In this document: in pieces, positions 8,136 through 24,838 of the stretch | How positions within the stretch are numbered: position 1 is the stretch's first letter | Layout of the letters: the number at the start of each line of letters is the position of its first letter | Assembly (NCBI RefSeq): GCF_009728145.1 | Contig: NZ_WOCA01000006.1 | Location: forward strand, 124,001-188,000 | Direction of reading: 5' to 3' | Length of the DNA stretch: 64,000 nt | Source: Ornithinibacillus caprae | Lineage (GTDB): Bacteria > Bacillota > Bacilli > Bacillales > Amphibacillaceae | Made by a program: the position numbers and the translations under genes | Notes under the pieces: model-generated | Told to the model about the DNA's origin: nothing | What the model saw: the letters and a program-made list of their open reading frames with translations, nothing else | The model's database searches: none

Positions 8136-8155
8136 AGGGTAGAGGGGGAAAAGTG

Positions 8156-9321: not shown

Positions 9322-9356
9322 ATCCATTCTAGCATTGTTGAGAGGAGGGAGTAGAG

Positions 9357-10483: not shown

Positions 10484-11249
10484 AACGTATATCAATGTTT
10501 TAAAAGAGGGGCCAATTGGTATTATTCAGCTTAATCGACCAAACGCGTTGAATGCACTTAATCGATTGATGGTGGATGAAATTGTTGAACAACTGGAAGA
10601 ATTTAATCGAGACGATCAGATTCGAGTCATTCTTTTAAAAGGTAATCATCGCGCTTTTGCAGCAGGTGCAGATATTGAGGAAATGATGGAAGATACTCCT
10701 CTAACTCTCGAAATGACAGATCCATTTGCGGTATGGGATCGCATTAGTCTTATAAAAAAGCCTATTATTGCTGCTGTAAATGGTTTTGCATTAGGTGGTG
10801 GGTTTGAACTTGCTTTGCATTGCGATTTAATTATTGCGGCTGAAGATGCGAAATTTGGTTTTCCAGAAGTGAAGCTAGGTGTGATGCCAGGAGCTGGTGG
10901 GACACAATTTTTAACGAAGGCCATGGGTAGACGAAAAGCTCTTGAATGGATATGGCTAGGAGAATCTATGTCTGCAAAGGAAGCGGCACATTATGGCGTA
11001 ATTAATCGAGTGGTTGCTCCTGAGCTAGTAGAGGAAGAAGCAATGAGATTAGCAAATCAGCTCACTAAGCAAGCACCTATTTCATTAAGATTGATTAAGG
11101 AAGCAGTATATGCAGCAGAAGACTTACCACTACTCGAGGGGAAAAAACTAGAGCGGAAAAACTTCTATGTCACATTTGCATCTGAAGATCAAAACGAAGG
11201 AATGCAGGCATTTAAAGAAAAACGTCCACCTTCTTTTAAGGGGGTGTAG
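10476..11249 (+). CDS. paaF: Enoyl-CoA hydratase, PaaF-like
   Basis: 257-residue crotonase. The oxyanion-hole segment AFAAGADIEEM (60-70) and both catalytic glutamates, E111 (GGGFELAL) and E131 (FPEVKLG), are present 20 residues apart as in true hydratases. In the Paa pathway PaaF hydrates 2,3-dehydroadipyl-CoA. I use the ATG at 10476, with GGTGAGG upstream; this gives the usual family length. Assignment to PaaF rests on operon position; it could be a general short-chain hydratase. Confidence 0.88.
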   Translation: MSKTYINVLKEGPIGIIQLNRPNALNALNRLMVDEIVEQLEEFNRDDQIRVILLKGNHRAFAAGADIEEMMEDTPLTLEMTDPFAVWDRISLIKKPIIAAVNGFALGGGFELALHCDLIIAAEDAKFGFPEVKLGVMPGAGGTQFLTKAMGRRKALEWIWLGESMSAKEAAHYGVINRVVAPELVEEEAMRLANQLTKQAPISLRLIKEAVYAAEDLPLLEGKKLERKNFYVTFASEDQNEGMQAFKEKRPPSFKGV

Positions 11250-11251
11250 TC

Positions 11252-12028
11252 GTGGGTTTTGAAACCATTGTGTATGAAGTAGATGAACAAGTAGCAACAA
11301 TTACGTTGAATCGTCCAACAGCCTATCATGCAATAACGGAAATGATGAACAAGGAAATTACGAAGGCAATAAAAACAGCCAGTAAGGATGGGGATATTAG
11401 ATGTATTGTCCTAACAGGTAGTGGAAAGGCATTCTGTTCTGGTCAGGATTTAGCAGATGTTGATGAAGATACAAATCATGCCTCTTTTTTGCGGGAACGA
11501 TATCATCCGATGTTAATGGCGATGAAACAAGCGCCAAAACCAATCGTAGCTGCCATTAATGGGACAGCAGCTGGGGCAGGAATGAGTTTAGCGTTAGCGG
11601 CTGATTTTCGTGTTATGCAAGCAAAAGCAAAATTTATTAGTGCCTTTTTAAATGTTGGTCTAGTACCTGACTCGGGATTTATATATATACTTCCGCGTTT
11701 AGTTGGATATGCAAAGGCATTAGAAATAGCCGCAATAGGAAAACCAATTACAGGTGAGGAAGCATATGAACTTGGTTTGGTGACGGAAGTTTATGATTCA
11801 TCTGAGTGGGATGAAAAGGTAAAGCAATTTGTAAATCGTTTAGCTGCATTACCGACAACATCTTTTTCATTGATAAAAAGGTATATGTTGGATGGAATGC
11901 ATAGTGAATTAGATGTATTTTTGGAGCAAGAAGCACAAGCACAGCGGATCGCTGGTTTGACTCAAGATCATCAAGAAGGCCTACATGCATTTGCAGAAAA
12001 GCGTAAACCAAAATTTACGGGTAGATAG
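11252..12028 (+). CDS. paaG: Ring-epoxide isomerase, PaaG-like crotonase
   Basis: 258-residue crotonase. FCSGQDLADV (61-70) is the oxyanion region; the first hydratase Glu is replaced (GAGMSLAL) while D140 in LVPDSG matches the catalytic Asp of PaaG-type isomerases. PaaG converts the phenylacetyl-CoA epoxide to the oxepin form and shifts double bonds later in the route. GTG start two bases after the previous stop, with AAGGGGGTG overlapping the end of that gene. Confidence 0.9.
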   Translation: MGFETIVYEVDEQVATITLNRPTAYHAITEMMNKEITKAIKTASKDGDIRCIVLTGSGKAFCSGQDLADVDEDTNHASFLRERYHPMLMAMKQAPKPIVAAINGTAAGAGMSLALAADFRVMQAKAKFISAFLNVGLVPDSGFIYILPRLVGYAKALEIAAIGKPITGEEAYELGLVTEVYDSSEWDEKVKQFVNRLAALPTTSFSLIKRYMLDGMHSELDVFLEQEAQAQRIAGLTQDHQEGLHAFAEKRKPKFTGR

Positions 12029-12049
12029 AAAACAAGGAGGCTTTTAATT

Positions 12050-13573
12050 ATGGCAGAAGCAGTAACTCAAGAAGGAATTACGGAAGTAGGAACGATGAAA
12101 CGGCAACATTATTCCATGATTATAAATGGGGAACGTGTGGAAAGTAGCACTGGTGAAGTATTTGAAACATATAATCCAGCAAAAGGAGAAGTATTAGCGA
12201 CTGTTGCTAAAGCTAGTAAAGAGGAAGCTGAAAAGGCTGTTCAAGCGGCAAGAAATGCATTTGACCATGGGAAGTGGCGTAAGTATCCCATTGGGAAGCG
12301 TGCTCGTGTATTGAATAAGATTGCAGCAATAATGAGGGAACGATTTAAAGAGTTAGTAGAAATCGAAGTATTAAATAGTGGAAAGTCTGTTGGCGCTGCA
12401 CAAGTGCAAATTAATCAATCAATTGAGGACTTTGAATTTTATGCCGGTGCGATCGTTGGGCATCGTGGTGAGGTAAACAATATGCCATATGGATTCTTCA
12501 ATTATACACATAAAGAACCAGTAGGAGTTTGCGCCCAAATTATCCCGTGGAACTACCCAATGATGATGGCTGCTTGGAAGATTGCACCAGCTATTGCAGC
12601 AGGGTGTTCGGTAGTAGTGAAACCGGCTAGCTTAACCCCTATAACTGCCATTATTTTAAATGAGATTTGTCATGAAGCAGGTGTTCCAGAGGGTGTTGTA
12701 AATACTATTCCAGGTTCTGGTGAAGTTGTTGGAGATTACTTAGTACAACATAAAGATGTGAATAAAGTTGCATTTACCGGCTCGACACCAACAGGTAGAG
12801 ATATTATGGAAAAAGCCTCAGGCACATTAAAACGACTTACCCTTGAGCTTGGTGGTAAGTCACCGAATATTGTGTTTGAGGATGCAGATTTAGAAGCAGC
12901 AGTCCCTGGTTCTCTTTTTGGTATTTTCTTTAATACTGGCCAGTCCTGTGAAGCACGTTCACGCATGTTTGTTCATGAGTCAATCTATGATGAGTTCATG
13001 GAGCAATTTGTCGCGAAAACGAAGAAACTAAAACTAGGCGACCCGTTCGATAAAGGAACACATGTAGGATCTATTATCAGTCGTAGTCAATTAGAAAAAA
13101 TTGATGCGTATGTTCAATCTGCCGTAGAAGATGGAGCAACTATCTTAACCGGTGGTAAAGAAATGCAAATCGAAGGATTTGAAAATGGTTATTGGTATGA
13201 GCCAACCATCATTGTCGATGTGACACCGGACATGAAAGCAGTTCGGGAGGAGATTTTTGGACCAGTAGTTGTTGTGGAGAAGTTTAGCGACGAAAAAGAT
13301 GTCATTAAGCGAGCGAATGATACCGAATATGGATTAGGTTCTGCAGTATGGACGACAAATCAAGCTCGAGCAACTCGTGTAGCCCATCAAATTGAAGCGG
13401 GAATTGTAATGGTGAACAGTCCGTTCTCTGCATTTCCAGGAACGCCATTTGGAGGTTACAAGCAATCAGGATTTGGTAGAGAGTTAAGTGTGGAAACACT
13501 AGATTTATACATGGAAGATAAAAGTGTTCTTGCTTATTATGGATCTAAACCACTAAATCCTTTTGGAGTATAA
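12050..13573 (+). CDS. Aldehyde dehydrogenase, probable ring-opened semialdehyde dehydrogenase (PaaZ-ALDH/PacL role)
   Basis: 507-residue NAD(P)-dependent aldehyde dehydrogenase. PWNYP (N168), K191, E266 (LELGGK) and the catalytic C300 (NTGQSCEARSR) are all present. It is a single-domain protein, whereas E. coli PaaZ is fused to a MaoC-type hydratase that opens the oxepin ring. Some bacteria split these functions and use a stand-alone dehydrogenase (PacL) for 3-oxo-5,6-dehydrosuberyl-CoA semialdehyde; the operon position supports this here. Overall similarity to betaine-aldehyde-type dehydrogenases leaves phenylacetaldehyde as an alternative substrate. Confidence 0.85.
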   Translation: MAEAVTQEGITEVGTMKRQHYSMIINGERVESSTGEVFETYNPAKGEVLATVAKASKEEAEKAVQAARNAFDHGKWRKYPIGKRARVLNKIAAIMRERFKELVEIEVLNSGKSVGAAQVQINQSIEDFEFYAGAIVGHRGEVNNMPYGFFNYTHKEPVGVCAQIIPWNYPMMMAAWKIAPAIAAGCSVVVKPASLTPITAIILNEICHEAGVPEGVVNTIPGSGEVVGDYLVQHKDVNKVAFTGSTPTGRDIMEKASGTLKRLTLELGGKSPNIVFEDADLEAAVPGSLFGIFFNTGQSCEARSRMFVHESIYDEFMEQFVAKTKKLKLGDPFDKGTHVGSIISRSQLEKIDAYVQSAVEDGATILTGGKEMQIEGFENGYWYEPTIIVDVTPDMKAVREEIFGPVVVVEKFSDEKDVIKRANDTEYGLGSAVWTTNQARATRVAHQIEAGIVMVNSPFSAFPGTPFGGYKQSGFGRELSVETLDLYMEDKSVLAYYGSKPLNPFGV

Positions 13574-13588
13574 AGAAAGGGGCATACC

Positions 13589-14464
13589 ATGACAATACGA
13601 AATATCGTAGTCGTGGGAGCTGGTGTAATGGGGCGAGGCATTGCCTATGTCTCGGCCCTTGCTGGTTTCCGCACAACGTTAGTAGATATATCTGAAAAAC
13701 AGCTTCAAGATGCCTATGAATATGCCAAAAACACCTCGGAAAAAGGTGTCCAACGAGGGAAGATAACAGTCGATGAATCTCTAAATCTATTCAATCATTT
13801 ACATACGTCTATAAATTTGGAGCAAACCGTAAAAGATGCTGATTTAATCATTGAAGCAGTACCAGAAAAACGTGAGTTGAAAAAGAATGTACTAGAGGTA
13901 ACTGATCAACATGCACCGAAGCACACTATTCTTGCATCAAATACCTCTACGATTAGCCCAACGGAGTTAGGTTCTTATACTACTCGACCAAAACAAGTTG
14001 CCGTCATGCACTTTTTTAATCCAGTTTATAGCATGCGTTTGGTTGAAATAGTTAAAGGGCTAGAAACAAGTCAAGAAGCAGTTTCCATTATTCAACAGGT
14101 AGCTGAAAAGATGGGCAAGGAAACGGTTGAAGTGAACGAGTTTCCGGGGTTTGTGACCAGTCGGATTAGTGCCTTAGTCGGAAATGAGGCATTTCATATG
14201 CTACAAGAAGGAGTTGCCACTGCTGAAGATATCGATAAAGCGATCCGACTCGGGTTGAATTATCCGATGGGACCATTAGAGCTTGGTGATTTAGTTGGTT
14301 TAGATGCTCGCTTAAATAACTTGAAATACCTACATGAAACATTAGGAGAAAAATATCGACCAGCACCTTTACTTGAACAATATGTGAAGGCAGGAAGATT
14401 AGGAAGAAAAACAGGCAAAGGTGTTTATGACTATACCGATAAAGGTGAGATGGTGAAAAAATGA
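13589..14464 (+). CDS. paaH: 3-hydroxyacyl-CoA dehydrogenase PaaH
   Basis: 291-residue NAD-dependent 3-hydroxyacyl-CoA dehydrogenase. The Rossmann motif GAGVMG is at 10-15, the catalytic His is in MHFFNP, and the C-terminal dimerisation domain contains NYPMGPLELGDLVGLD. In this operon it should oxidise 3-hydroxyadipyl-CoA to 3-oxoadipyl-CoA. The stop overlaps the start of the thiolase gene by four bases (ATGA), indicating coupled translation. Confidence 0.93.
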   Translation: MTIRNIVVVGAGVMGRGIAYVSALAGFRTTLVDISEKQLQDAYEYAKNTSEKGVQRGKITVDESLNLFNHLHTSINLEQTVKDADLIIEAVPEKRELKKNVLEVTDQHAPKHTILASNTSTISPTELGSYTTRPKQVAVMHFFNPVYSMRLVEIVKGLETSQEAVSIIQQVAEKMGKETVEVNEFPGFVTSRISALVGNEAFHMLQEGVATAEDIDKAIRLGLNYPMGPLELGDLVGLDARLNNLKYLHETLGEKYRPAPLLEQYVKAGRLGRKTGKGVYDYTDKGEMVKK

Positions 14465-15663
14465 GAGATGTCGTAATCGTGGATGCTGTCCGTACGCCAA
14501 TTGGAAGATATAAAGGTGCATTAAAAAGTATACGACCAGATGACCTTGGCGCAACGGTTATTCAAGCTTTGGTCGACCGAAATCCATCCGTTCCACTAGA
14601 GCAAATTGAAGAGGTAGTCCTTGGTAATGCCAATCAAGCTGGAGAAGATAATCGGAATGTTGCCAGAATGTCTACCCTTCTAGCTGGGTTACCAGTAACG
14701 GTGGGGGCAACAACGATTAATAGATTATGTGGTTCTGGTCTAGACGCGGTTATGTATGCTGCACGAGCTATAGCGGTGGGTGAAGGTGATATTTTCATAG
14801 CAGGTGGCACAGAGAGTATGACACGTGCTCCTTTTGTTATGGCCAAACCAACAAAGGATTTTCCACGTGGAAATATGGAACTCTTGGATACAACGATTGG
14901 CTGGCGGTTTGTTAATAAAAAACTAGAACAGCGATATGGGACGGACTCTATGCCGCAAACAGCAGAAAATGTAGCTGAGCGTTATCGCATTACAAGGGAA
15001 GAGCAGGATCAATTTGCCTATGAAAGTCAGCAACGCGCCAAGCAAGCGGTAGAATCTGGCCGCTTAGAAGATGAGCTCGTACCGGTTTTTTATCATGATC
15101 GAAAAGGGAATGAGGTTGTAGTTGCCCAGGATGAACATCCACGTCCTGAAACGACATTGGAAAAGTTGTCTACTTTACAGCCAATCTTTGATGGTGGAAC
15201 AATTACAGCGGGAAATGCATCAGGAGTAAATGATGGTGCATCCGCCTTACTAGTCATGAGTGCTGAAAAGGCTAAGGATTTAGGGTTAAATCCATTAGTG
15301 AAATATGTTGTTAGTGCAACAGCAGGTCTTGAACCATCGATAATGGGATTAGGTCCAATCTATGCCTCGAAAAAGGCGTTGAATCGAGCTGGGTTAATGG
15401 TTGATCAAATTGGATTGGTGGAGTTAAATGAGGCATTTGCTTCTCAGTCTATCGAATGTATTCGTCAGTTAGGTCTTGATCATGAACAGGTAAATGTGAA
15501 TGGTGGAGCAATAGCGTTTGGGCATCCATTAGGTGCAAGTGGTGCACGTATCCTTACAACACTCATTCATGAAATGAAAAAACGCGATACACAGTATGGT
15601 CTAGCAACAATGTGTGTCGGTGTAGGTCAAGGCATATCTGTTGTTGTGGAAAATGTTGATTGA
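14461..15663 (+). CDS. paaJ: 3-oxoadipyl-CoA / 3-oxo-5,6-dehydrosuberyl-CoA thiolase PaaJ
   Basis: 400-residue thiolase. The acyl-accepting C90 (NRLCGSGLDA), H355 (AFGHPLGASG) and C385 (CVGVGQG) form the expected catalytic set. Length and motifs match the PaaJ/PcaF group, which releases acetyl-CoA and finally succinyl-CoA. It follows paaH without a gap and is the last gene of the tight part of the operon; a 132-base space follows. Confidence 0.93.
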   Translation: MRDVVIVDAVRTPIGRYKGALKSIRPDDLGATVIQALVDRNPSVPLEQIEEVVLGNANQAGEDNRNVARMSTLLAGLPVTVGATTINRLCGSGLDAVMYAARAIAVGEGDIFIAGGTESMTRAPFVMAKPTKDFPRGNMELLDTTIGWRFVNKKLEQRYGTDSMPQTAENVAERYRITREEQDQFAYESQQRAKQAVESGRLEDELVPVFYHDRKGNEVVVAQDEHPRPETTLEKLSTLQPIFDGGTITAGNASGVNDGASALLVMSAEKAKDLGLNPLVKYVVSATAGLEPSIMGLGPIYASKKALNRAGLMVDQIGLVELNEAFASQSIECIRQLGLDHEQVNVNGGAIAFGHPLGASGARILTTLIHEMKKRDTQYGLATMCVGVGQGISVVVENVD

Positions 15664-15795
15664 ACATGGTTAGTGAGGGTCGAGGAGAAGGTGATTTACT
15701 CATATATAGTGTGGGAGTGTTCATAAATCAAAATAATCGCTCATAATGATTTTTTCAGTATCACGGAAAATATACTTGAAAGGAGTTTAACAACC

Positions 15796-16572
15796 TTGAA
15801 AAACATCCTTTATCAAAAGGAAAACGGTATTGCTTATGTAACGATCAATAGAGAAAAAGCTTTAAACTGCTTTAACTTTGAAACACTCCAAAACCTTCAG
15901 CAGGTAATCGAACAAATCCATATCGATCCAGAGATTCAAGTAGTTATTATTACTGGTGCGGGGCAGAAGGCATTTAGTGCTGGAGCTGACCTTAAAGAAC
16001 GAAAAACGCTCACTGAAACAGAAGTACGTAGAAATGTAAAAAAGATTCGCGACGTCTTTAATCAGATTGCACAGCTTCCGCAACCAACGATAGCTGCAGT
16101 AAATGGGTATGCGTTTGGTGGTGGTTTTGAATTAATACTAGCTTGTGACTTTGCAATTGCAGTAAGCGGTGCTCAAATGGGCTTAACGGAAACGAGTTGG
16201 GCAATTATACCAGGTGCAGGAGGAACACAGCGGTTACCTAGACTAGTTGGTGAAATGAAGGCAAAGGAATTAATTTTAACGGCAAAAAAATTAACAGCAG
16301 AAGAAGCACTAGAGTTAGGTGTGTTGCTTCAAGTAGTAGATGAAGGAGAACTGCTTTCTACATGTGAGCAACTAGCGAGAGATATCATGAAAAATGGACC
16401 AATTGCTGTTAAACAGGCAAAACATGCGATTATTCAAGGAATGAATACGGATATTCAAACCGGTCTCGAAATTGAATCAAAGGCATATGAACTAACAATT
16501 CCAACAGAGGATCGGATGGAAGCATTACTAGCATTTAGTAAGAAACGTCAGCCAGAGTTTAGAGGTAAATAG
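15796..16572 (+). CDS. Enoyl-CoA hydratase/isomerase family protein (third crotonase)
   Basis: 258-residue crotonase with AFSAGADLKER (59-69) and two catalytic glutamates at E112 and E132, again 20 apart, so probably a hydratase. The run LTETSWAIIPGAGGTQRL is typical of the Bacillus YngF/methylglutaconyl-CoA hydratase subgroup. It may serve the phenylacetate route or a branched-chain acid route. TTG start, with GAAAGGAG nine bases upstream. Confidence 0.88.
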   Translation: MKNILYQKENGIAYVTINREKALNCFNFETLQNLQQVIEQIHIDPEIQVVIITGAGQKAFSAGADLKERKTLTETEVRRNVKKIRDVFNQIAQLPQPTIAAVNGYAFGGGFELILACDFAIAVSGAQMGLTETSWAIIPGAGGTQRLPRLVGEMKAKELILTAKKLTAEEALELGVLLQVVDEGELLSTCEQLARDIMKNGPIAVKQAKHAIIQGMNTDIQTGLEIESKAYELTIPTEDRMEALLAFSKKRQPEFRGK

Positions 16573-16591
16573 TTTTATAAGGTGAGATCTT

Positions 16592-16645
16592 ATGAGCGCA
16601 CCAACATCGGCCACAAACGCACCAGCCAGTCTAAATCATCATTAA
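16592..16645 (+). CDS. Possible 17-codon ORF
   Basis: ATG with AAGGTGAG upstream opens a short Ala/Pro/Ser/Thr-rich frame between the third crotonase and the NPD gene. It may be a leader-like peptide or chance. Nothing else supports it. Confidence 0.2.
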   Translation: MSAPTSATNAPASLNHH

Positions 16646-16657
16646 AGGAGGGTCAAC

Positions 16658-17641
16658 ATGCACGATATCTGTACGTTACTAAATATCAGTTATCCAATCA
16701 TCCAAGGAGGAATGGGGAATATAAGTAATGCTTCCTTAACAGCCGCTGTTTCAGAAGCAGGAGGGCTAGGGACGATTGGGTGTGGAACAATGTCCCCAGA
16801 AGAGGTTGAAAAAATTATACTCTCCATGAAACAACTAACTGATCATCCCTTTGCTGTGAACATTGCTATTAATGTAACTCCGTATGTAGAAGAGTTACTT
16901 ACCTTAGTTATAAAACATGAGATTCCGATCGTATCTTTATCAGCAGGTAACCCTGCACCTTACATACCAATTTTACATGAACATAATATACAGGTAATTG
17001 CTATAGTAGCGGCAGTAAAGCATGCTCAAAAAGCAGAGGCTGCTGGAGCTGATCTTTTAGTAGCAGAAGGTTTTGAAGCAGCAGGAATAAATTCAAATTT
17101 AGAACTTACAACATTTACCTTAATTCCACAAATAGTTCAGCAGGTGAATATACCTGTAATTGCAGCAGGAGGAATTGGGGATGGAAAAGGATTAGCAGCT
17201 GCATTAACATTAGGGGCTAGTGGTGTTCAGCTGGGTACGCGATTAATTGCCACCAAGGAAGCTCCTTTCCATAAATCATACAAGAAAGGGTTGATCCAGG
17301 CTGAAGGATCAGATGCAATTATCATAGGTCGTTCAGTAGGAAGAGTTAGACGGGTATTAAAGAATAACTATGCTGAAAAGCTATATTCCTTAGAAAAAAG
17401 TGGTTTATCTTTAGAAGAATATAATCGGCTAACTTCAGAAGACCAACACATTCGAGGAGCGATTCAAGGTGACGAGAATAATGGTTTCTTAAATAGTGGG
17501 CAAGTAGCAGGCTTAATTCAGGATGAACCAAGTGTTGCAGAACTCTTTGAAAAGATGGTCCAGGAAGCAAATCAACAAACGCAACGTACTTCCCAAATAA
17601 TACAATCTGTTCCCCGATCCATTAGTCGAAATAACAAATAA
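16658..17641 (+). CDS. NPD-like flavoprotein (nitronate monooxygenase / FabK-like family)
   Basis: 327-residue TIM-barrel FMN protein of the 2-nitropropane dioxygenase-like family. YPIIQGGMGNIS at the N-terminus, AEGFEAAG (phosphate/FMN region) and IAAGGIGDGKG are the hallmarks. Family members include nitronate monooxygenases and enoyl-ACP reductase FabK; residues do not settle which. It follows a crotonase and has AAAGGAGGG as ribosome site. A redox step on an enoyl-CoA intermediate is conceivable. Confidence 0.85.
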   Translation: MHDICTLLNISYPIIQGGMGNISNASLTAAVSEAGGLGTIGCGTMSPEEVEKIILSMKQLTDHPFAVNIAINVTPYVEELLTLVIKHEIPIVSLSAGNPAPYIPILHEHNIQVIAIVAAVKHAQKAEAAGADLLVAEGFEAAGINSNLELTTFTLIPQIVQQVNIPVIAAGGIGDGKGLAAALTLGASGVQLGTRLIATKEAPFHKSYKKGLIQAEGSDAIIIGRSVGRVRRVLKNNYAEKLYSLEKSGLSLEEYNRLTSEDQHIRGAIQGDENNGFLNSGQVAGLIQDEPSVAELFEKMVQEANQQTQRTSQIIQSVPRSISRNNK

Positions 17642-17668: not shown

Positions 17669-17697
17669 TTGACTGCATTGTTACGCAGTGATAAAAT
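17669..17697 (+). promoter_or_regulatory. Sigma-A promoter of the thioesterase-PheDH-E1 unit
   Basis: TTGACT (-35), 17-base spacer, TAAAAT (-10). The dyad ACGTT-N5-AACGT starts two positions after the -10, matching the paaA promoter base for base in spacing. A weak cre-like piece (TGTAAGCG followed by TTTCA, 17747-17759) lies downstream. Confidence 0.75.
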
Positions 17698-17698
17698 A

Positions 17699-17713
17699 AC
17701 GTTTAAATAACGT
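17699..17713 (+). promoter_or_regulatory. Operator-like dyad ACGTT-N5-AACGT, second copy
   Basis: Perfect inverted repeat ACGTT, TAAAT, AACGT. It shares the flanking ATA before the left arm with the paaA copy; only the AT-rich spacer and the right flank differ. Position right after the -10 box predicts repression. This ties the downstream unit to the paa operon. Confidence 0.72.
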
Positions 17714-17821
17714 CATATAATAACTTTTCATTAAATAAGGTAATAATGTAAGCGTTTCAATGAACTTGTACATGTATTTAACCCTATACTAACAGTGGAA
17801 ATGGGGAAAAGGAGTGGTACC

Positions 17822-18226
17822 TTGAAGCCGGGAATGGAAATTGGCAGGAAGGAATCAATAGAAATAGAAGTGACCGAAGATATGTTTGCTAGTTTTGAAG
17901 GAAAAGTTGTACATCCAGCATATTCAACTGTAGCAATGGTTTACCATATGGAATGGGTGTCTAGAAAGATCATACTACCGTTTTTAGAGGATCATGAAGA
18001 GGGTATGGGAGCTGCAGTAGAACTAAAACATATTAATGCGTCACCAGTACATTCTAAAGTGAAATTAATCGCAACTCTTACAGAATATAAAGATCAACAA
18101 GTAATTACCAAGGTTGAAGCATATAATGAACAAGGGATTATTGGTAAAGGGATAGTTAAACAAGTAATTCTACCGAAAAAAGTGATTCAACAAAAACTAT
18201 CTGTACCAGAAAGTGAAAACATGTAA
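17822..18226 (+). CDS. FlK-like hotdog thioesterase
   Basis: 134 residues from the TTG at 17822, which has AAAAGGAG seven bases upstream; the in-frame GTG at 17795 would lack a ribosome site. The fold family is that of fluoroacetyl-CoA thioesterase. T36, E44 and H70 fall at exactly the spacing of the FlK catalytic triad (T42, E50, H76; constant offset of six). It probably hydrolyses a CoA ester made in this pathway, for instance to free CoA from a blocked or toxic aromatic acyl-CoA. Substrate unknown. First gene of the PheDH unit. Confidence 0.8.
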
Positions 18227-18252
18227 AAGAATCCTCGCGTAGGAGGTTTTTT

Positions 18253-19392
18253 ATGGGATTAATAGAAGGGTTATCAATAGATGAAGAATTTACACTCTTA
18301 GATAAAATGTCCGAACACGAACAGATTGTATTTTGTAATAATCCAAACTCAGGGTTACGGGCAATTATTGCAATACATAATACAACATTAGGACCAGCAC
18401 TTGGAGGATGTAGAATGCATCCTTATCAAAGTATAGAAGAGGCTTTGGAAGATGTGCTTCGTCTTTCAAAAGGTATGACTTATAAATGTGCTGCAGCAGA
18501 TGTTGACTTTGGTGGTGGAAAAGCCGTCATCATCGGCGATCCCCTCACAGACAAAACACCAGAACTATTCCGCTCATTTGGCCAATATGTTGACTCACTC
18601 GGAGGCCGATTTTATACAGGAACTGACATGGGTACAACCATGGATGATTTTATTCAGGCAATGAAAGAAACTACTAATATTGTTGGGGTGCCAGAAGCAT
18701 ATGGAGGAGGCGGTGATTCTTCCATCCCTACTGCCATGGGAGTGCTATACGGTATCCAGGCAACAAACCAAGCCTTATTTGGAAAACAGAAACTTAATGG
18801 GGTCTCCTATGCTATACAGGGACTCGGTAAAGTGGGCTTTAAGGTAGCCGAGCGATTGCTAGATGAAGGAGCGAGCATCGTTGTAACAGATGTAAGTGAA
18901 GAAAAATTGCAGGCTATAAACAAAAAAGCAACTCAAACCGCTGGGAATGTCCAAATAGTTGAACAAACCAAAATCTACTCTCAGGATGTGGATATATTTG
19001 TACCGTGTGCAGTTGGTGGAGTGATTAATGATGATACGATTAACCAATTAAAAGCTAAAGCAATTGTTGGTTCCACTAATAACCAATTGAAATCAGAAGA
19101 GCATGGAAAAAAAATATCAGAAAAAGGTATATTATATGCACCTGACTACATTGTGAATGCTGGTGGACTTATACAGGTAGCAGATGAATTATATGGTGCG
19201 AATAAAGAACGAGTTCTTGCAAAGACGAAAGAAATCTATCATGTGATCCTCGAAGTCTACCAACAAGCAGAAATCCACCAAATAACAACTAATGAAGCTG
19301 CAAATCGAATATGTGAAAGAATTATCGCTGAGAAAGCGAGAAGAAATAGTTTTTATACGAGGTCTATTAAACCTAAATGGGATATACGATAA
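18253..19392 (+). CDS. Phenylalanine dehydrogenase
   Basis: 379-residue NAD-dependent amino acid dehydrogenase of the Glu/Leu/Phe/Val family, converting L-phenylalanine to phenylpyruvate and ammonia. Catalytic K78, K90 and D125 are present, and the Rossmann motif is GLGKVG at 190-195. The two positions that separate phenylalanine from leucine dehydrogenases in Bacillus enzymes are Gly and Leu here (G123 in YTGTDMG, L306 in [11 protein letters not shown]), as in phenylalanine dehydrogenase, where leucine dehydrogenase has Ala and Val. The insertion [13 protein letters not shown] also matches the phenylalanine enzymes. AGGAGG precedes the start; E1 genes follow. Confidence 0.9.
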
Positions 19393-19421
19393 TGTAGTTT
19401 ACTAGAATTGGAGGTTTCGGC

Positions 19422-20477
19422 ATGGAGAATAATTTTCCTATCCTGAAAATAATGGATGATCAAGGTAATTTATTGGAAGAATCGTACAGGGAAAAGTTAG
19501 ATAAACAGCTGGTTTACCAATTTTATTACCATATGTGTAGAATTCGTACGTTTGATCAGAAGGCGAAAAATCTACAACGACAGGGACGAATAGGAACATA
19601 TCCGCCGTTTGAAGGGCAGGAAGCAGCACAGGTTGGAAGTGCATTAGCTTTAGGGCCAAATGATTGGATGTTTCCGACCTATCGTGATCATGGAGCGATG
19701 TTAACATTTGGGTCTGATATGATAAGAACTTTTCTGTATTGGAATGGAAGAGTAGAGGGGTGTGTGCCTCCTAATGGGAAAAACATCTTCCCTGCAGCTG
19801 TTCCGATAGCAACACAATTACCACATGCTGCAGGTGCTGCTTGGGCAGAAAAAAGAAAAGGGACCAATAATGTATCGATTGTGTACTTTGGAGATGGAGC
19901 AACATCAGAAGGTGATTTCCATGAAGGGTTAAACTTTGCTAGTGTCTTTCAAACACCAACGATCTTTTTTAATCAAAATAATCGGTATGCTATTTCGGTT
20001 CCGTTTGATAAACAAATGAATTCAAAAACAATAGCCCAAAAAGCTATTGCCTATGAAATACCTAGTGTAAGAATTGATGGAAATGATTGTTTTTCCGTTT
20101 ATTTTGAAACAAAAAAAGCGGTTGAGCGAGCAAGAAATGGTGAGGGTCCAACGTTGATTGAAGCAGTAACTTGGCGAACAGGAGCTCATACTACTGCAGA
20201 TGATCCAACTAAATATCGACCACAGGATCAAGGGAAGGATATTGTAGAACCAATTACTCGTCTAGAGCGATTTATGAAGAACTACGGTTTTTGGAATGAA
20301 GCAGAAATTACGCAAATGAAGATGAATATCGAAGAAGAAGTGGAAGCGGCTGTTAAAGGGATGGAAGAATATCCAAAAGCGAAAGTAGAAGATTTATTTG
20401 ATCATGTATATGCAAATCCTCCAAAGCAATTGCAGGAACAAAAAGACACTTACTTGGAACTATTAAGGAGGGAATAA
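19422..20477 (+). CDS. 2-oxoacid dehydrogenase E1 component, alpha subunit
   Basis: 351-residue thiamine-diphosphate enzyme subunit, similar to PdhA. The ThDP motif runs from GDG (157-159) to NN (186-187); PTYRDHGAML and the HAAGAAWAEKRKG segment are typical. It works with the beta subunit to decarboxylate a 2-oxoacid and load the acyl group on a lipoyl-E2. Because it sits one gene after phenylalanine dehydrogenase and under a paa-type operator, phenylpyruvate is the likely substrate, giving phenylacetyl-CoA. No E2 or E3 gene is nearby. A pyruvate or branched-chain role cannot be excluded from sequence alone. Confidence 0.88.
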   Translation: MENNFPILKIMDDQGNLLEESYREKLDKQLVYQFYYHMCRIRTFDQKAKNLQRQGRIGTYPPFEGQEAAQVGSALALGPNDWMFPTYRDHGAMLTFGSDMIRTFLYWNGRVEGCVPPNGKNIFPAAVPIATQLPHAAGAAWAEKRKGTNNVSIVYFGDGATSEGDFHEGLNFASVFQTPTIFFNQNNRYAISVPFDKQMNSKTIAQKAIAYEIPSVRIDGNDCFSVYFETKKAVERARNGEGPTLIEAVTWRTGAHTTADDPTKYRPQDQGKDIVEPITRLERFMKNYGFWNEAEITQMKMNIEEEVEAAVKGMEEYPKAKVEDLFDHVYANPPKQLQEQKDTYLELLRRE

Positions 20478-20478
20478 T

Positions 20479-21498
20479 ATGGCTACACAGGTAAAAAAAA
20501 CACCTCAACAGAATGCTGTTACAGAGAAAATGACACTGATTCAAGCGATTAATGATGGAATGAAAACGGTACTTGAAAATGATCAGATGACTCTGATTTT
20601 AGGGGAGGACGTTGGTAAAAACGGAGGAGTTTTCCGTGCAACGGATGGGCTACAAGAACAATTTGGAGAGGATCGTGTAGTCGATACCCCTCTATCAGAA
20701 TCAGGTATTATCGGAACCTCTGTCGGTCTTGCTGTAAATGGGTTCAAACCGATTGCAGAGATTCAATTTATGGGCTTTATTTATCCGGCATATGATCAAA
20801 TTATGACTCATGTATCTCGTTTGCGAATGAAAACAATGGGGCATTTCTCGGTTCCTATGGTAATTAGGGCGCCCTATGGAGCGGGAGTTCGAGCTCCAGA
20901 AGTACACTCTGATTCTGCAGAAGTACTTTTTACTCACATGCCGGGGTTAAAAGTCGTTTGTCCAGCAACGCCACACGATGCAAAAGGATTATTGATTGCA
21001 GCAGTAGAAGATCCCGACCCAGTATTATATCTCGAGCCAATGCGTAGCTACCGTTCAACTAAAGAAGAAGTACCGGTAGATTCATACAGTATAGAAATTG
21101 GAAAAGGAAACATTCGCAAGGAAGGGAATGATGTTACGGTTATTGCTTGGGGAGCGATGATCCCAACTGTGGAAAAAGCGGTACAGCAAATAGAACGAAA
21201 TGGGGTGAGTTGTGAAGTAATTGATTTACGCACATTGTATCCATTAGACAGAAACATCATTGCAGAGTCTGTTCAAAAAACTGGTAGAGCTGTGGTTGTA
21301 CATGAGGCTCATGCTACTAGTGGTCTTGGGAATGATATAGTATCTGTGATTAATGATACGTCATTTCTTTACTTGAAGGCTCCAATCGAGAGAGTAACAG
21401 GATTTGATGTTCCAGTACCATTCTTTGCTTTGGAGGAACATTACCTTCCGACACCAAAGCGTGTCCAAATAGCTATTGAAAAAGTAGTTCATTTTTAG
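20479..21498 (+). CDS. 2-oxoacid dehydrogenase E1 component, beta subunit
   Basis: 339-residue E1 beta (PdhB/BkdAB-like). LGEDVGKNGGVFRAT, TPLSESGIIG and the C-terminal transketolase-like domain with VHEAHATSGLG are clear family marks. It begins two bases after the alpha subunit's stop, with AAGGAGG inside the end of that gene, so the two are cotranslated. The N-terminal ~17 residues are longer than in many homologues. The unit ends here; no lipoyl-domain gene follows, so a shared E2/E3 from another complex would be needed. Confidence 0.9.
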   Translation: MATQVKKTPQQNAVTEKMTLIQAINDGMKTVLENDQMTLILGEDVGKNGGVFRATDGLQEQFGEDRVVDTPLSESGIIGTSVGLAVNGFKPIAEIQFMGFIYPAYDQIMTHVSRLRMKTMGHFSVPMVIRAPYGAGVRAPEVHSDSAEVLFTHMPGLKVVCPATPHDAKGLLIAAVEDPDPVLYLEPMRSYRSTKEEVPVDSYSIEIGKGNIRKEGNDVTVIAWGAMIPTVEKAVQQIERNGVSCEVIDLRTLYPLDRNIIAESVQKTGRAVVVHEAHATSGLGNDIVSVINDTSFLYLKAPIERVTGFDVPVPFFALEEHYLPTPKRVQIAIEKVVHF

Positions 21499-21680
21499 CG
21501 TTAAAGTTAATTTTCTTGGCATGCTTAAGCAGAACCTAGCTCTTTCAATAAATGCTTGCATCAAGAGTATAGGGCTTCTTAAAATTTCAAGAATCCCTTT
21601 AACCATAACCAAGTTTTTAAACGATTAGGAAAATGTAACTAGAAAAATAAAAAATTTATAAATCCTTACAACCTCTAATG

Positions 21681-21694
21681 GGTAAGCGTTTACA
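21681..21694 (+). promoter_or_regulatory. cre-like CcpA site
   Basis: GGTAAGCGTTTACA matches the cre consensus TGWAANCGNTNWCA at 13 of 14 positions. It lies 25 bases before the -35 box of the ABC importer promoter, so it could serve carbon control of this importer. Confidence 0.5.
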
Positions 21695-21719
21695 AAATTG
21701 TAAAATATTTTAGAATTGC

Positions 21720-21747
21720 TTGACTCCGGTTAAGAGTATGATATAAT
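21720..21747 (+). promoter_or_regulatory. Promoter of the ABC importer operon
   Basis: TTGACT (-35), 16-base spacer, TATAAT (-10), about 50 bases before the ribosome site AAGGGGG of the substrate-binding protein gene. Confidence 0.75.
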
Positions 21748-21795
21748 TTGTCAAATATATTTTGAATATTATATGAAAATAAGGGGGAATACGTA

Positions 21796-22794
21796 ATGAA
21801 GAGATGGCTTCAGTTAATGGTTTTAGCAATGATTAGCGTCTTAGTATTAGCTGCATGTGACGATAGTACGAGCGGAGATGGTGATGGAAAAACGTTTAAA
21901 ATCGGAGCATCACAAATAGTAGAGCATCCATCGCTTGATCGAGCATATGAAGGTTTTCAAGCTGCATTAGAAGATGCGGGATTAGATGTAGAGTATGACT
22001 TTCAAAGTGCTCAAGGAGATCAAAACAATGTTAAACCGATCTCAGATGGTTTTGTAGCGGACGGTGTAGATATGATTTTTGCAAATTCAACACCTAGTGC
22101 GTTGGGAGCATTACAAGCTACTGAAAACACGAAGGATATTCCAGTATTATTTACATCAGTTACAGATGCTGTAGATGCTGGTTTGGTAGCTGCAATGGAT
22201 GAACCAGGCGAAAATATAACTGGGGTTGTTGACCTTCATCCAGATGCAATTCAAGAAACTGTGAAATTTATAGATACGTATTTCCAAGATGCAACAGTAG
22301 GATTGATTTATAACGCTGGTGAACAAAACTCCGTGACTCAAATTGAAGCAGTAAAATCTGCTGCTGAAGGTACTAGTTTAAGTTTTGAAGAGCGTACAGT
22401 AGCAAACTCTTCAGAAGTACAACAAGCAGCAACTACATTAGTTAGTGATATTGATGTATTTTATATCGTTACCGATAACACAGTTGTTTCTGCATTAGAA
22501 AGTGTTGTGGGGGTAGCAAATGATCAAGATATACCTTTAGTTGTAGGGGAACCAGATTCTTTAGCAAAAGGCGGCTTTGTCACTTACGGAATTGACTACT
22601 ACACCATTGGTTATCGTACAGGGGAAATGGCTGTTGAGATCTTAACAGGGGAAAAAACAACTCAGGACATCGATGTGGAATATCCACCAGAAATTCAACT
22701 ATTTATCAATAAAGAAGCGGTGGAAGAGCAAGCTGTTGAATGGGTTGATGCATGGGATGATGAAGCACAATTTGTAGAGTCGGAAGAAGAATAA
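21796..22794 (+). CDS. ABC importer substrate-binding lipoprotein, TrpX-like
   Basis: 332-residue lipoprotein with a signal peptide and lipobox LVLAAC (Cys at about 21), then a two-lobed periplasmic-binding domain of the TrpX/ABC_sub_bind family (KIGASQIVEHPSLDRAYEGF start). Family members of the TrpXYZ group have been linked to aromatic amino acids. Encoded right after the phenylalanine dehydrogenase and E1 genes, it plausibly captures phenylalanine or a related aromatic compound at the cell surface. The acidic C-terminal tail is a loose end. Confidence 0.85.
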   Translation: MKRWLQLMVLAMISVLVLAACDDSTSGDGDGKTFKIGASQIVEHPSLDRAYEGFQAALEDAGLDVEYDFQSAQGDQNNVKPISDGFVADGVDMIFANSTPSALGALQATENTKDIPVLFTSVTDAVDAGLVAAMDEPGENITGVVDLHPDAIQETVKFIDTYFQDATVGLIYNAGEQNSVTQIEAVKSAAEGTSLSFEERTVANSSEVQQAATTLVSDIDVFYIVTDNTVVSALESVVGVANDQDIPLVVGEPDSLAKGGFVTYGIDYYTIGYRTGEMAVEILTGEKTTQDIDVEYPPEIQLFINKEAVEEQAVEWVDAWDDEAQFVESEEE

Positions 22795-22825
22795 ATCAAT
22801 AAAATTTCATTGAGTAAATAAATGC

Positions 22826-22851
22826 AAAGCAGGCTCAAGCCTGCTTTGTTA
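22826..22851 (+). terminator. Internal terminator/attenuator between binding protein and permease
   Basis: Nine-bp stem AAAGCAGGC / GCCTGCTTT with a four-base loop, followed by a weak GTTATT tail. It probably lets the binding protein be made in excess of the membrane parts, a usual pattern in ABC importers. Confidence 0.65.
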
Positions 22852-22896
22852 TTCTAAGAAACTTACTAAAATAGTGCGAGAAGGGGGACATCAAGG

Positions 22897-23883
22897 GTGC
22901 TGTTATCATTATTTGGTGCTATTGAATCAGGAATTATATATGGAATTATGGCTTTAGGTGTATACCTTACCTTCCGCGTTTTGGATTTTCCTGATTTAAC
23001 GGTTGACGGTAGTTTCGTTACTGGTGCAGGAGTAGCAGCCATTTCTATCGTAAATGGTGTATCACCAATTGTTGCTACTATGCTTGCGATAATCGCTGGA
23101 TTTATTGCAGGATGTATAACGGGATTACTTCATACAAAAGGAAAAATTAATGCGCTTCTATCTGGGATTTTGATGATGATCGCTCTATATTCCATTAATT
23201 TACGAATAATGGCTTCACCAACCGTATCCTTATTAGGTGAATCTACTATTTTTAGACAGCTACAACCATTATGGTCTGCAGTTGGTCTTGATTCATTTTT
23301 CAATGGTATTTTACAACTATTCGGTGCAGATAGAGTACCGTCAACGTGGGTAATTGTATTCTTTATGATTGTTGTTGTACTAATAATTAAATTTTTAACT
23401 GATTATTTCTTGAAAACCGAGGTTGGCTTAGCATTAAGAGCAACCGGGGATAATAAACGTATGATCCGAAGTTTTTCCGCTAATACCGATAATTTAATCA
23501 TTGTCGGAGTGGGTATTTCTAATGCGATGGTAGCACTCTCAGGGGCATTAATTGCACAGCATGGTGGATTTGCTGATGTGCAAATGGGGATCGGAATGAT
23601 CGTCATTGGTCTTGCTTCGGTTATTATTGGGGAAGCACTGTTTGGTAAAAAGACCATTGCTATTGCAACTATTGCGGTTATTGGTGGAGCAGTCATCTAT
23701 CGAATCGTAGTTACATTAGCGCTTCGTGTTGATTTCTTGGAAACAGGTGATATGAAATTAATAACTGCAGTACTTGTTATTGTTGCCTTAGTTGCACCAA
23801 AAATCATGAACGCTCGGAAAGAACAAAAAAGACGCTTACGTAAACGAGCAGAATTAAGCACACAAATAGAGGAGGCATCGTGA
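22897..23883 (+). CDS. ABC importer permease, TrpY-like
   Basis: 328-residue integral membrane protein (branched-chain amino acid/ribose-type permease family, BPD_transp_2) with about eight hydrophobic segments. LRATGDNKRMIRSF is the cytoplasmic coupling loop. GTG start with GAAGGGGG upstream. It pairs with the TrpX-like protein before it and the ATPase after it. Confidence 0.88.
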   Translation: MLLSLFGAIESGIIYGIMALGVYLTFRVLDFPDLTVDGSFVTGAGVAAISIVNGVSPIVATMLAIIAGFIAGCITGLLHTKGKINALLSGILMMIALYSINLRIMASPTVSLLGESTIFRQLQPLWSAVGLDSFFNGILQLFGADRVPSTWVIVFFMIVVVLIIKFLTDYFLKTEVGLALRATGDNKRMIRSFSANTDNLIIVGVGISNAMVALSGALIAQHGGFADVQMGIGMIVIGLASVIIGEALFGKKTIAIATIAVIGGAVIYRIVVTLALRVDFLETGDMKLITAVLVIVALVAPKIMNARKEQKRRLRKRAELSTQIEEAS

Positions 23884-23884
23884 T

Positions 23885-24679
23885 ATGCTAAATCTAAGCA
23901 ATATCTCTATTACATTTAACGAAGGAACACCAGATGAAAAAAAAGCCTTACAACGTATAAACCTTGAGCTGAAACAAGGGGAATTCGTTACGGTGATTGG
24001 GAGTAATGGTGCTGGGAAGTCGACACTAATGAATGTTATTTCGGGTAATCTAGCTCCAGACGTAGGTGATGTATCCATCGCGAATAATAAGGTTACTTTT
24101 TTACCAGAGTATAAACGTTCTACGATGATCGGTCGTGTTTTCCAAGATCCAATGGCTGGTACAGCACCTTCGATGACGATTGAAGAGAACTTAGCGATGG
24201 CTTACTCAAGAAATAAAAAACGAAAATTAAAGCTAGGTGTATCGAAAAAAAGAAAAGAGTACTTTCGTGAATATTTAACAACCTTAAATCTAGGTTTGGA
24301 AGATCGCTTAAATGCAAAGGTGGGGTTGCTTTCGGGTGGAGAACGACAAGCGCTCTCTTTATTAATGGCAACATTTACTGAGCCAAATATTTTATTACTT
24401 GATGAACATACAGCCGCACTTGATCCTTCTCGTGCTGAATTAATCACTAAAATTACACAAGATGTGGTACAAAAGTTTGGATTAACCACATTGATGGTCA
24501 CACATAATATGCAGCAAGCATTAGATCTAGGAAATCGACTCATTATGATGGATAAAGGCCAAATTATTTTAGATATTAATGGCGATAAGAAACAACAGTT
24601 AACCATCGAAGACTTATTACAGGAGTTTAAACGTATTCGAGGGGAACAGTTTGAAAGTGATCGGGCAGTACTCGGTTAA
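23885..24679 (+). CDS. ABC importer ATP-binding protein, TrpZ-like
   Basis: 264-residue ATPase: Walker A GSNGAGKST near 39-47, signature LSGGERQ, Walker B ILLLDEHTAALDP, and the H-loop THNMQQAL. The ATG lies one base after the permease stop. A terminator follows at once, so this ends the importer operon. Confidence 0.93.
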   Translation: MLNLSNISITFNEGTPDEKKALQRINLELKQGEFVTVIGSNGAGKSTLMNVISGNLAPDVGDVSIANNKVTFLPEYKRSTMIGRVFQDPMAGTAPSMTIEENLAMAYSRNKKRKLKLGVSKKRKEYFREYLTTLNLGLEDRLNAKVGLLSGGERQALSLLMATFTEPNILLLDEHTAALDPSRAELITKITQDVVQKFGLTTLMVTHNMQQALDLGNRLIMMDKGQIILDINGDKKQQLTIEDLLQEFKRIRGEQFESDRAVLG

Positions 24680-24717: not shown

Positions 24718-24838
24718 GAGAGTAGATTTTTTCTAATCAATGGTGCGAACTGAAGCTCTTGTTTGTCATTCTAAGAACCAATCTAACCCCCTTTACATAG
24801 CCTAATTTTAAACGAGTTGAATTATGTGAAGGGGATTG

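What the first reader, a model, noticed from the sequence alone, without database searches (positions are those of the whole stretch)
17669..24679. Possible direct route: phenylalanine import, phenylpyruvate, phenylacetyl-CoA without phenylacetate
The second unit encodes phenylalanine dehydrogenase and 2-oxoacid dehydrogenase E1 alpha/beta, followed by a TrpXYZ-like importer. The oxidative decarboxylation of phenylpyruvate would give phenylacetyl-CoA, the substrate of PaaABC, with no need for PaaK, which is missing from the window. Known routes to phenylacetyl-CoA usually go through phenylacetate plus ligase or a ferredoxin-dependent 2-oxoacid oxidoreductase. A dedicated phenylpyruvate dehydrogenase under paa-type control would be a new arrangement.
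Basis: inference. Interest (0 to 1): 0.85.

Follow-up and report, generated by a model that had tools for sequence, protein, structure and literature searches.

The report
Direct phenylalanine-to-phenylacetyl-CoA enzyme, split complex
Next to the genes that break down phenylacetyl-CoA, this Bacillus relative carries a phenylalanine dehydrogenase and half of a pyruvate-dehydrogenase-like machine that probably makes phenylacetyl-CoA straight from phenylalanine; the other half appears to lie in its tyrosine-type degradation operon, and similar gene sets recur in many Bacillus relatives.

Summary
PaaK is absent from the whole genome (best hit 21 bits); IOR has no match over cut-off. The dehydrogenase matches characterised Bacillus badius PheDH at 14 of 14 published catalytic and pocket residues, and B. 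badius has paa genes followed by PheDH-E1alpha-E1beta-E2-E3. The E1 is a distinct clade, not PDH or BKD; in 397 order genomes it occurs in 156 of 167 with paaA and 9 of 230 without. In all 11 sampled genomes of the genus a matching E2 sits in the 4-hydroxyphenylacetate (hpa) operon, beside a second dehydrogenase with Asn instead of Val at pocket position 144. E1 belongs to the paa-linked lineage, E2 to the hpa-linked one: probably a hybrid complex serving both rings. No substrate has been assayed. A PDH-like phenylpyruvate step is proposed for pristinamycin biosynthesis (PglB/C); ten paper searches found no dedicated catabolic use.

The parts
6047..6889 (-). PaaX repressor
   Evidence: TIGR02277 372.7 bits, cut-off 264.55
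7146..9857 (+). paaA, paaB, paaC, paaD (phenylacetyl-CoA epoxidase); no paaE recognised
   Evidence: TIGR02156/02157/02158/02159 all over cut-off
10461..17641 (+). lower paa genes: two enoyl-CoA hydratase/isomerase genes, aldehyde dehydrogenase, 3-hydroxyacyl-CoA dehydrogenase, 3-oxoadipyl-CoA-type thiolase, a third crotonase, NMO/FabK-like gene
   Evidence: order conserved in relatives
17669..17697 (+). promoter-like site of the E1 unit (TTGACT-17-TAAAAT)
   Evidence: consensus scan; the scan found fewer sites than its shuffles, so weak evidence
17795..18226 (+). FlK-family hotdog acyl-CoA thioesterase; proposed to release 4-hydroxyphenylacetate (and phenylacetate) from its CoA ester
   Evidence: PF22636 115 bits; PDB 2cwz and FlK chains; found in 40 of 52 loci with E1alpha at 57% identity or more
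18253..19392 (+). L-phenylalanine dehydrogenase (Phe to phenylpyruvate)
   Evidence: 14 of 14 catalytic/pocket residues of B. badius PheDH conserved; own LeuDH-type gene differs at 4 of the 14
19422..20477 (+). E1alpha of the proposed arylpyruvate dehydrogenase
   Evidence: TIGR03181 470.8 bits; own clade in tree; orthologues
20479..21498 (+). E1beta of the proposed arylpyruvate dehydrogenase
   Evidence: PRK09212 307 bits, cut-off 321; 64-81% to the E1beta of the family cassette loci
21720..21747 (+). promoter-like site of the importer unit, preceded by a cre-like sequence
21796..24679 (+). ABC importer (SBP, permease, ATPase), probably for phenylalanine or aromatic amino acids
   Evidence: TrpX family below cut-off; PDB relatives 6hni, 3lkv, 3lft; permease and ATPase relatives in 27 of 52 cassette loci

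Best explanation
The unit encodes the first half of a side-chain route for phenylalanine that enters the paa pathway at phenylacetyl-CoA. The importer (21796-24679) brings in the amino acid; PheDH (18253-19392) oxidises it to phenylpyruvate; E1alpha/beta (19422-21498), a thiamine-diphosphate 2-oxoacid dehydrogenase E1 of a clade of its own, decarboxylates phenylpyruvate and passes the phenylacetyl group to the lipoyl arm of an E2, which hands it to CoA; E3 reoxidises the lipoyl group. Phenylacetyl-CoA goes directly to PaaABC. In this genus the E2 is not in the paa locus: it is most probably the otherwise partnerless E2 in the hpa operon (G000:C39:27219-28457), beside a second aromatic dehydrogenase (Asn at pocket position 144), with E3 borrowed from another complex. 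The same E1 would then also convert 4-hydroxyphenylpyruvate from tyrosine, and a thioesterase would free 4-hydroxyphenylacetate for HpaBC. Shown by sequence: gene identities, PheDH pocket, absence of PaaK and IOR over cut-off, co-occurrence, trees. Inferred: E1 substrate, E1-E2 pairing, thioesterase role, transport substrate.
For: PheDH catalytic and pocket residues identical to B. badius PheDH at 14/14 (residues from passages of PMC8543943). In B. badius NBRC 15713 the 380-aa PheDH lies after paa genes, PaaX, NMO and a Na+ symporter and before E1alpha-E1beta-E2-E3. E1 clade: 156 of 167 paaA+ and 9 of 230 paaA- genomes in the order sample of 397. Of 77 loci counted out of 80 fetched from named genomes: E1alpha at 57% or more, 52 loci: amino-acid dehydrogenase in 41, E2 49, paa genes 41, hpa genes 8, paa or hpa 46; E1alpha under 50%, 14 loci: 0 dehydrogenase, 0 paa, 0 hpa. 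E2 of the matching clade in 23 of 27 paaA+ genomes, exactly the 23 with the E1 clade; the other 4 have 40-41% at best. All 11 sampled genus genomes: E1 without E2 in the paa locus, E2 without E1 in the hpa locus. E1 tree: window in the paa-linked lineage; E2 tree: own E2 in the hpa-linked lineage, support 0.997. Pocket residue 144: Val in 38 of 41 paa-only loci (Ala 2, Asn 1), Asn in 17 of 17 hpa-only loci, 11 of which are the window genus; Asn arises at least twice on the tree. E2 and E3 directly after the E1 inside paa clusters: G043, G072, Piscibacillus, Tenuibacillus.
Against: No activity data. 8 of 11 genus paa loci lack PheDH and 9 of 11 lack the thioesterase while keeping E1 (the window has both), so those species must use the hpa dehydrogenase or an aminotransferase. 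Absence of PaaK is not associated with the E1 in the order sample (Fisher p = 1.0); 4 of 11 paaK+ genomes in the family sample lack the E1, and 11 of 167 paaA+ genomes of the order sample lack it. The E1-E2 pairing between operons rests on co-occurrence, elimination and orthology; the PDH or BKD E2 could serve. E1alpha passes the NCBI 'pyruvate dehydrogenase' cut-off. Thr59, where PDH and BKD have Phe, is shared with sister E1s that have no aromatic neighbours, so it does not prove aryl specificity. Cassettes also occur without paa or hpa in the fetched flanks (6 of 52), and the E1 clade occurs in 6 family and 9 order genomes without paaA.
Confidence: 0.8

Rival explanations
1. The E1 is an accessory pyruvate or branched-chain 2-oxoacid dehydrogenase that happens to sit beside paa genes (for example to burn pyruvate from HpaI-type cleavage).
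For: E1alpha scores 470.8 bits on the PDH model TIGR03181, over its cut-off; the hpa route yields pyruvate (established knowledge of the pathway).
Against: The genome already has a PDH-type complex (C3), a BKD-type complex with a LeuDH-type gene (C11), an acetoin-type complex and an acetoin-type orphan E1 (types assigned by gene order and tree). The window E1 is a separate clade, adjacent to a PheDH and not a LeuDH, and tied to paaA, whose pathway makes no pyruvate.
Confidence: 0.08
2. Arylpyruvate dehydrogenase as proposed, but it uses the E2 (and E3) of the PDH or BKD complex, the hpa E2 having another role.
For: No E2 in the paa locus in the 11 sampled genus genomes; E2 sharing between E1s is known in other complexes (recalled).
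Against: The hpa E2 is the only E2 found in the genome without its own E1 beside it; its orthologues lie directly after this E1 in relatives; co-occurrence 23 of 23 with the E1 clade and 0 of 4 without.
Confidence: 0.12
3. The cassette makes phenylacetyl-CoA only for hydrolysis: PheDH + E1/E2 + thioesterase form a phenylacetate-excreting (energy or detoxification) pathway, not a feed into PaaABC.
For: Thioesterase in 40 of 52 cassette loci; the E1 clade occurs in genomes without paaA (6 of 29 E1-positive genomes of the family sample).
Against: The strong co-occurrence with paaA; phenylacetate could not be taken back without PaaK; thioesterase missing from 9 of 11 genus paa loci that keep E1.
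Confidence: 0.1
4. Phenylalanine is degraded by the aldehyde route: phenylpyruvate decarboxylase, phenylacetaldehyde dehydrogenase (the ALDH at 12050-13573) and an unrecognised phenylacetate-CoA ligase.
For: An ALDH lies in the operon and scores 464 bits on StyD, below its cut-off of 850; the TIGR02155 search had 11 first-look candidates in the genome, so other ligase-like genes exist.
Against: The ALDH is 83-91% conserved in the 14 family paa loci L051-L064, with or without PaaK, and fits the ring-opened semialdehyde step (established knowledge of split PaaZ); no PaaK above 22 bits in the genome. Phenylpyruvate decarboxylase was not searched for.
Confidence: 0.08

Closest known systems
PglB/PglC, 'phenylpyruvate dehydrogenase' of L-phenylglycine biosynthesis (Streptomyces pristinaespiralis; passages of PMC10685826 and PMC7089894)
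   Same: PDH-like E1 alpha/beta pair suggested to turn phenylpyruvate into phenylacetyl-CoA, in an operon with a thioesterase; no E2 gene is named in the passages read
   Different: Antibiotic biosynthesis; an aminotransferase and no PheDH in the operon; product oxidised by PglA and not fed to PaaABC (there the paa operon competes for it); sequences not compared here
Bacillus badius phenylalanine dehydrogenase (passages of PMC8543943 and PMC10354591)
   Same: 14 of 14 catalytic and pocket residues; same E1alpha-E1beta partners in B. badius itself
   Different: The passages read treat it as a biocatalyst and do not mention its operon
Branched-chain 2-oxoacid dehydrogenase locus with LeuDH-type gene (own C11 locus, L018)
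   Same: Amino-acid dehydrogenase in one locus with E1alpha, E1beta and E2: the same logic for branched-chain amino acids
   Different: Different clade of E1 and E2; different pocket in the dehydrogenase
PaaK route and indolepyruvate/phenylpyruvate:ferredoxin oxidoreductase route to phenylacetyl-CoA
   Same: Same product
   Different: PaaK and IOR models have no match over cut-off in the genome

Membership tests
Phenylacetate (paa) catabolic cluster | PaaABC(D) epoxidase genes | tested here: met
   All over cut-off
Phenylacetate (paa) catabolic cluster | PaaK ligase | tested here: not met
   21.3 bits best in the genome, cut-off 646.3
Phenylacetate (paa) catabolic cluster | PaaE reductase | tested here: inconclusive
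   No PaaE match among the operon ORFs scanned except 47 bits of the haloarchaeal PaaE model (cut-off 100) in the C-terminus of PaaD; whole genome not searched
Phenylalanine dehydrogenase (EC 1.4.1.20) | Catalytic and substrate-pocket residues of BbPheDH | tested here: met
   14/14
Phenylalanine dehydrogenase (EC 1.4.1.20) | Activity with L-Phe | not testable with these tools
   Needs assay
2-oxoacid dehydrogenase E1 (alpha2beta2 type) | E1_dh domain in alpha and PDH-type beta subunit | tested here: met
   PF00676 285.3 bits, TIGR03181 over cut-off; beta 307 bits on PRK09212, cut-off 321; PDB alignments
Pyruvate dehydrogenase E1 (TIGR03181 equivalog) | Score over the curated cut-off | tested here: met
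   470.8 against 411.35; but the PDH-type E1alpha at C3 also scores 474.8 and is only 39% identical to the window E1, so the model does not separate them
Pyruvate dehydrogenase E1 (TIGR03181 equivalog) | Groups with the genome's PDH in a tree | tested here: not met
   Separate clade
Phenylpyruvate dehydrogenase (PglB/C type) | Sequence kinship to PglB/PglC | not tested
   No PglB/C sequence obtained
Phenylpyruvate/arylpyruvate dehydrogenase | Oxidative decarboxylation of phenylpyruvate to phenylacetyl-CoA | not testable with these tools
   Inferred from context
Indolepyruvate:ferredoxin oxidoreductase | TIGR03336 over cut-off | tested here: not met
   0 of 17 genomes over cut-off; best in this genome 21.3 bits against 650.9

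The most novel reading that the evidence does not exclude
A single arylpyruvate dehydrogenase serves two ring-cleavage pathways and its subunits are divided between their operons: E1 of the paa-linked lineage in the phenylalanine/paa operon, E2 of the hpa-linked lineage in the tyrosine/hpa operon, each operon in the window's genome keeping its own tuned dehydrogenase (Val144 for Phe, Asn144 for Tyr). The series G013 (paa E1 only, complete complex at hpa), G125 (paa E1, hpa E2-E3), window genus (paa E1, hpa E2) shows how a hybrid complex can arise by reciprocal loss from two duplicated complexes.
Probability: 0.6. Interest if true: 0.85.

Novelty: new variant of a known kind. Interest (0 to 1): 0.74.

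Why it matters
If right, it adds an aryl-dedicated kind of 2-oxoacid dehydrogenase complex to the pyruvate, 2-oxoglutarate, branched-chain and acetoin kinds, gives a physiological partner to the much-used Bacillus phenylalanine dehydrogenases, supplies a ligase-free entry to the phenylacetyl-CoA hub in many Bacillus relatives, corrects a likely 'pyruvate dehydrogenase' annotation, and offers a natural case of a multi-enzyme complex divided between two operons.

Tried and rejected
Replacement of PaaK by the E1 as a general rule: rejected. In the family sample the window-type E1 (70% or more) goes with PaaK absence (intact PaaK in 1 of 16 genomes with it, 10 of 11 paaA+ genomes without it; 11 of the 16 are one genus, so not independent), but in the order sample PaaK and E1 are unassociated.

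T-box or other known riboswitch for the importer: none at the gathering threshold; Rfam gave only a cobalamin riboswitch at 28514-28701 in 3500-29000. PaaX-controlled E1 unit: a k-mer comparison of upstream stretches showed no obvious operator shared with paaA; words shared by the E1 unit and the importer proved to contain cre-like sequences. Aryl-specific E1 residues: Thr59 and others are shared with sister E1s without aromatic context; Asn184 (37 of 37) and Asn108 (35 of 37) are aryl-clade-specific among the E1s aligned but their position relative to substrate was not modelled. No structure prediction was run: only single chains can be folded, and from established knowledge the active site lies between subunits.

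Literature: 10 searches showed no paper that, from its listing or the passages I opened, describes a PDH-type phenylpyruvate dehydrogenase feeding paa catabolism; most listed papers were not opened and the library lacks most subscription journals. Opened by passages only: PMC10685826, PMC9007349, PMC6498646, PMC7089894, PMC9239090, PMC8543943, PMC10354591; PMC8967036 was searched for the Asn145/Val144 point without a match, and PMC8543943 holds neither 'N145' nor 'tyrosine'. Teufel 2010 is not held. I recall, unverified, that the annotation tool GapMind lists a two-subunit phenylpyruvate decarboxylase; the passages of its paper that I read do not mention it. Recalled and from no call: the cre consensus, the Tyr-binding role of Asn145 in Lysinibacillus sphaericus PheDH, PaaI specificity, and the ligands of 6hni/3lkv/3lft.
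Full report
Observation. The stretch 17795-24679 holds, on +, an FlK-family thioesterase, a Glu/Leu/Phe/Val-type dehydrogenase, E1alpha, E1beta and a three-gene ABC importer, directly after a paa operon (paaABCD, crotonases, aldehyde dehydrogenase, hydroxyacyl-CoA dehydrogenase, thiolase, NMO-like gene) with divergent paaX. PaaK is missing from the window and from the assembly (21.3 bits, cut-off 646.3); IOR is not over cut-off in any of 17 genomes looked at, this one included. The genus is probably Ornithinibacillus: contig C57 of G098, a genome of the same genus, has the length and E1 position of a contig of O. californiensis DSM 16628 (inference).

Which dehydrogenase. The 380-aa ORF at L187:11820-12962 of Bacillus badius NBRC 15713 has, number for number, the 14 catalytic and pocket residues that PMC8543943 lists for B. 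badius PheDH (passages of the paper; length 380 from a passage of PMC10354591). The window enzyme is 74% identical to it and has the same residue at all 14 positions. The genome's own LeuDH-type gene, in the BKD-type locus, differs at four (F86L, G123A, V144T, L306V). So the first step is very probably phenylalanine to phenylpyruvate.

Which E1. The genome has seven PF00676 matches: PDH-type at C3, BKD-type at C11, acetoin-type at C22:347k, an acetoin-type orphan pair at C22:226k, OGDH at C38, the window's, and a weak 30-bit one (types by gene order and tree). In the tree the window E1alpha lies apart from PDH, BKD and acetoin types in a well-supported clade of Bacillus-relative E1s. It passes the NCBI PDH equivalog cut-off, as the C3 E1alpha does, so automatic annotation will probably call it pyruvate dehydrogenase.

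Distribution. In 146 family genomes the E1alpha search shows a gap: 30 loci in 29 genomes at 57-100% identity, the next at 49% or less. paaA is over cut-off in 27 of 146. Of these 27, 23 have the E1 clade; 6 E1 genomes lack paaA. PaaK, taken as present at 590 bits or more (only one genome reaches the curated cut-off; next matches are at 191 bits), is intact in 11 of the 27, split with a stop in G013 and absent in 15. All 16 without intact PaaK have the E1 clade; so do 7 of the 11 with PaaK. In 397 order genomes paaA is over cut-off in 167, the E1 clade (E up to 1e-120) in 165, both in 156, paaA alone in 11, E1 alone in 9 (Fisher p about 5e-84, not corrected for kinship). The two weakest paaA matches (G251, G508) were dropped before this count as the two of 169 not over cut-off. 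Among the 167, 137 have PaaK (128 with E1) and 30 do not (28 with E1): no association. The E1 is thus a companion of the paa pathway, usually beside PaaK, and the only recognised entry in this genus.

Neighbourhoods. Of 52 loci with E1alpha at 57% or more: dehydrogenase 41, E2 49, thioesterase 40, paa genes 41, hpa genes 8, importer permease and ATPase 27, PaaK 4 within the flanks, paa or hpa 46. Of 14 loci under 50%: none has dehydrogenase, paa, hpa or thioesterase (13 have an E2). The remaining 11 (50-57%) add 3 with dehydrogenase and 1 with paa. Other transporters stand in such loci: a sodium:neurotransmitter-type symporter in B. badius, an amino-acid permease in Priestia, an NhaC-type carrier in G044 and others.

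The missing E2. No E2 or E3 lies in the paa locus in any of the 11 sampled genomes of the genus (in G060 the locus is cut by a contig end). The genome has five E2s; four stand beside their own E1, the fifth (C39) stands in a 4-hydroxyphenylacetate operon with HpaE, HpaB, HpaD and HpaG over cut-off, after a second aromatic dehydrogenase. This E2 has lipoyl, E3-binding and catalytic domains and is 50-63% identical to E2s that follow this E1 in the family loci, against 32-36% to the PDH, BKD and acetoin E2s of the genome and 36-40% to its other E2s in another alignment. In 27 paaA+ genomes an E2 of this clade (54% or more) occurs in exactly the 23 that have the E1 clade. In all 11 genus genomes it is in an hpa locus without an E1 (in G098 the contig begins inside that operon). 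In the trees the window E1 belongs to the paa-linked lineage (with Piscibacillus, Tenuibacillus, Sporosarcina, B. badius), while the E2 belongs to the lineage that holds all the family hpa-locus copies sampled except those of G103-like loci, together with some loci without hpa in the flanks (support 0.997). Relatives show the steps: E1-E2-E3 in paa (G043, G072; E2 without E3 in G045), E1 only in paa plus E1-E2-E3 at hpa (G013), E1 in paa plus E2-E3 in hpa (G125), E1 in paa plus E2 in hpa (this genus). G072's E1alpha frame carries a stop codon.

Two rings. Pocket position 144 of the dehydrogenase is Val in 38 of 41 paa-only loci (Ala 2, Asn 1) and Asn in 17 of 17 hpa-only loci (11 of them the window genus); in loci with both, Asn 3 and Val 1; in loci with neither in the flanks, Asn 9, Val 6, Ser 1, Ala 1 (79 enzymes with Gly123, at least one locus counted twice, the window's own Val not included). 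On a tree made without that column Asn arises at least twice: in the hpa-linked lineage and in the Sporosarcina/Paenisporosarcina group; there L099, which has paa and hpa genes, and L097, a short contig, carry a Val and an Asn copy in tandem. I recall that the matching Asn in L. sphaericus PheDH contacts the tyrosine hydroxyl; two papers that I searched for this do not mention it. The reading is that one complex serves phenylpyruvate and 4-hydroxyphenylpyruvate. HpaB needs free 4-hydroxyphenylacetate, which would explain a thioesterase; but 9 of 11 genus paa loci and all 11 fetched hpa loci of the genus lack it, so in most of the genus it must lie elsewhere or be dispensable.

Control. The E1 unit and the importer each have a promoter-like site, but the scan found fewer such sites than shuffled sequence gives (39 against 55.5). 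Cre-like sequences (recalled consensus, up to 2 mismatches) lie before the importer in 12 of 18 loci (11 of 11 of the genus, at a similar position in 10), before the E1 unit in 9 of 18, and before paaA in 0 of the 16 that had sequence there; base-shuffled stretches give about 0.07-0.18 each. This suggests catabolite repression, and gives no support to 'paa-type control'.

Known or new. A PDH-like phenylpyruvate-to-phenylacetyl-CoA step is proposed in print for pristinamycin phenylglycine (PglB/C; passages of PMC10685826 and PMC7089894). My ten paper searches showed no account of it in paa catabolism or beside PheDH. I rate it a new variant of a known kind.

Noticed in passing
window 4196-5182 (-): The paa operon lacks a recognised PaaE reductase; a thioredoxin-reductase-like flavoprotein (below that family's cut-off, ferredoxin-NADP-reductase-like by eye) lies near paaX here and in G013, G125 and G100. 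Candidate substitute for PaaE.
   Followed up: partly
window 10178-10483: EthD-family gene between paaD and the first crotonase, 81-94% conserved in the family paa loci fetched that contain it; role unknown.
   Followed up: no
window 16658-17641: NMO/FabK-like flavoprotein kept in many paa clusters of Bacillus relatives; role unknown.
   Followed up: no
G000:C22:226431-227318 (L014): Second E1alpha/beta pair without E2, close in sequence to the acetoin-type pair at C22:347k, near genes that look by eye like thiamine biosynthesis.
   Followed up: no
G013:C1:1658398-1659928: paaK is split with an in-frame stop near a paa + E1 cluster: possible ongoing loss of PaaK.
   Followed up: partly
window 28514-28701: Cobalamin riboswitch upstream of the gene at 28790, which looks by eye like a ribonucleotide reductase.
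   Followed up: no
window 24836-25465: Gamma-carbonic-anhydrase/CcmM-like hexapeptide protein after the importer; another, scoring higher on PaaY, is at 5405-5938.
   Followed up: no
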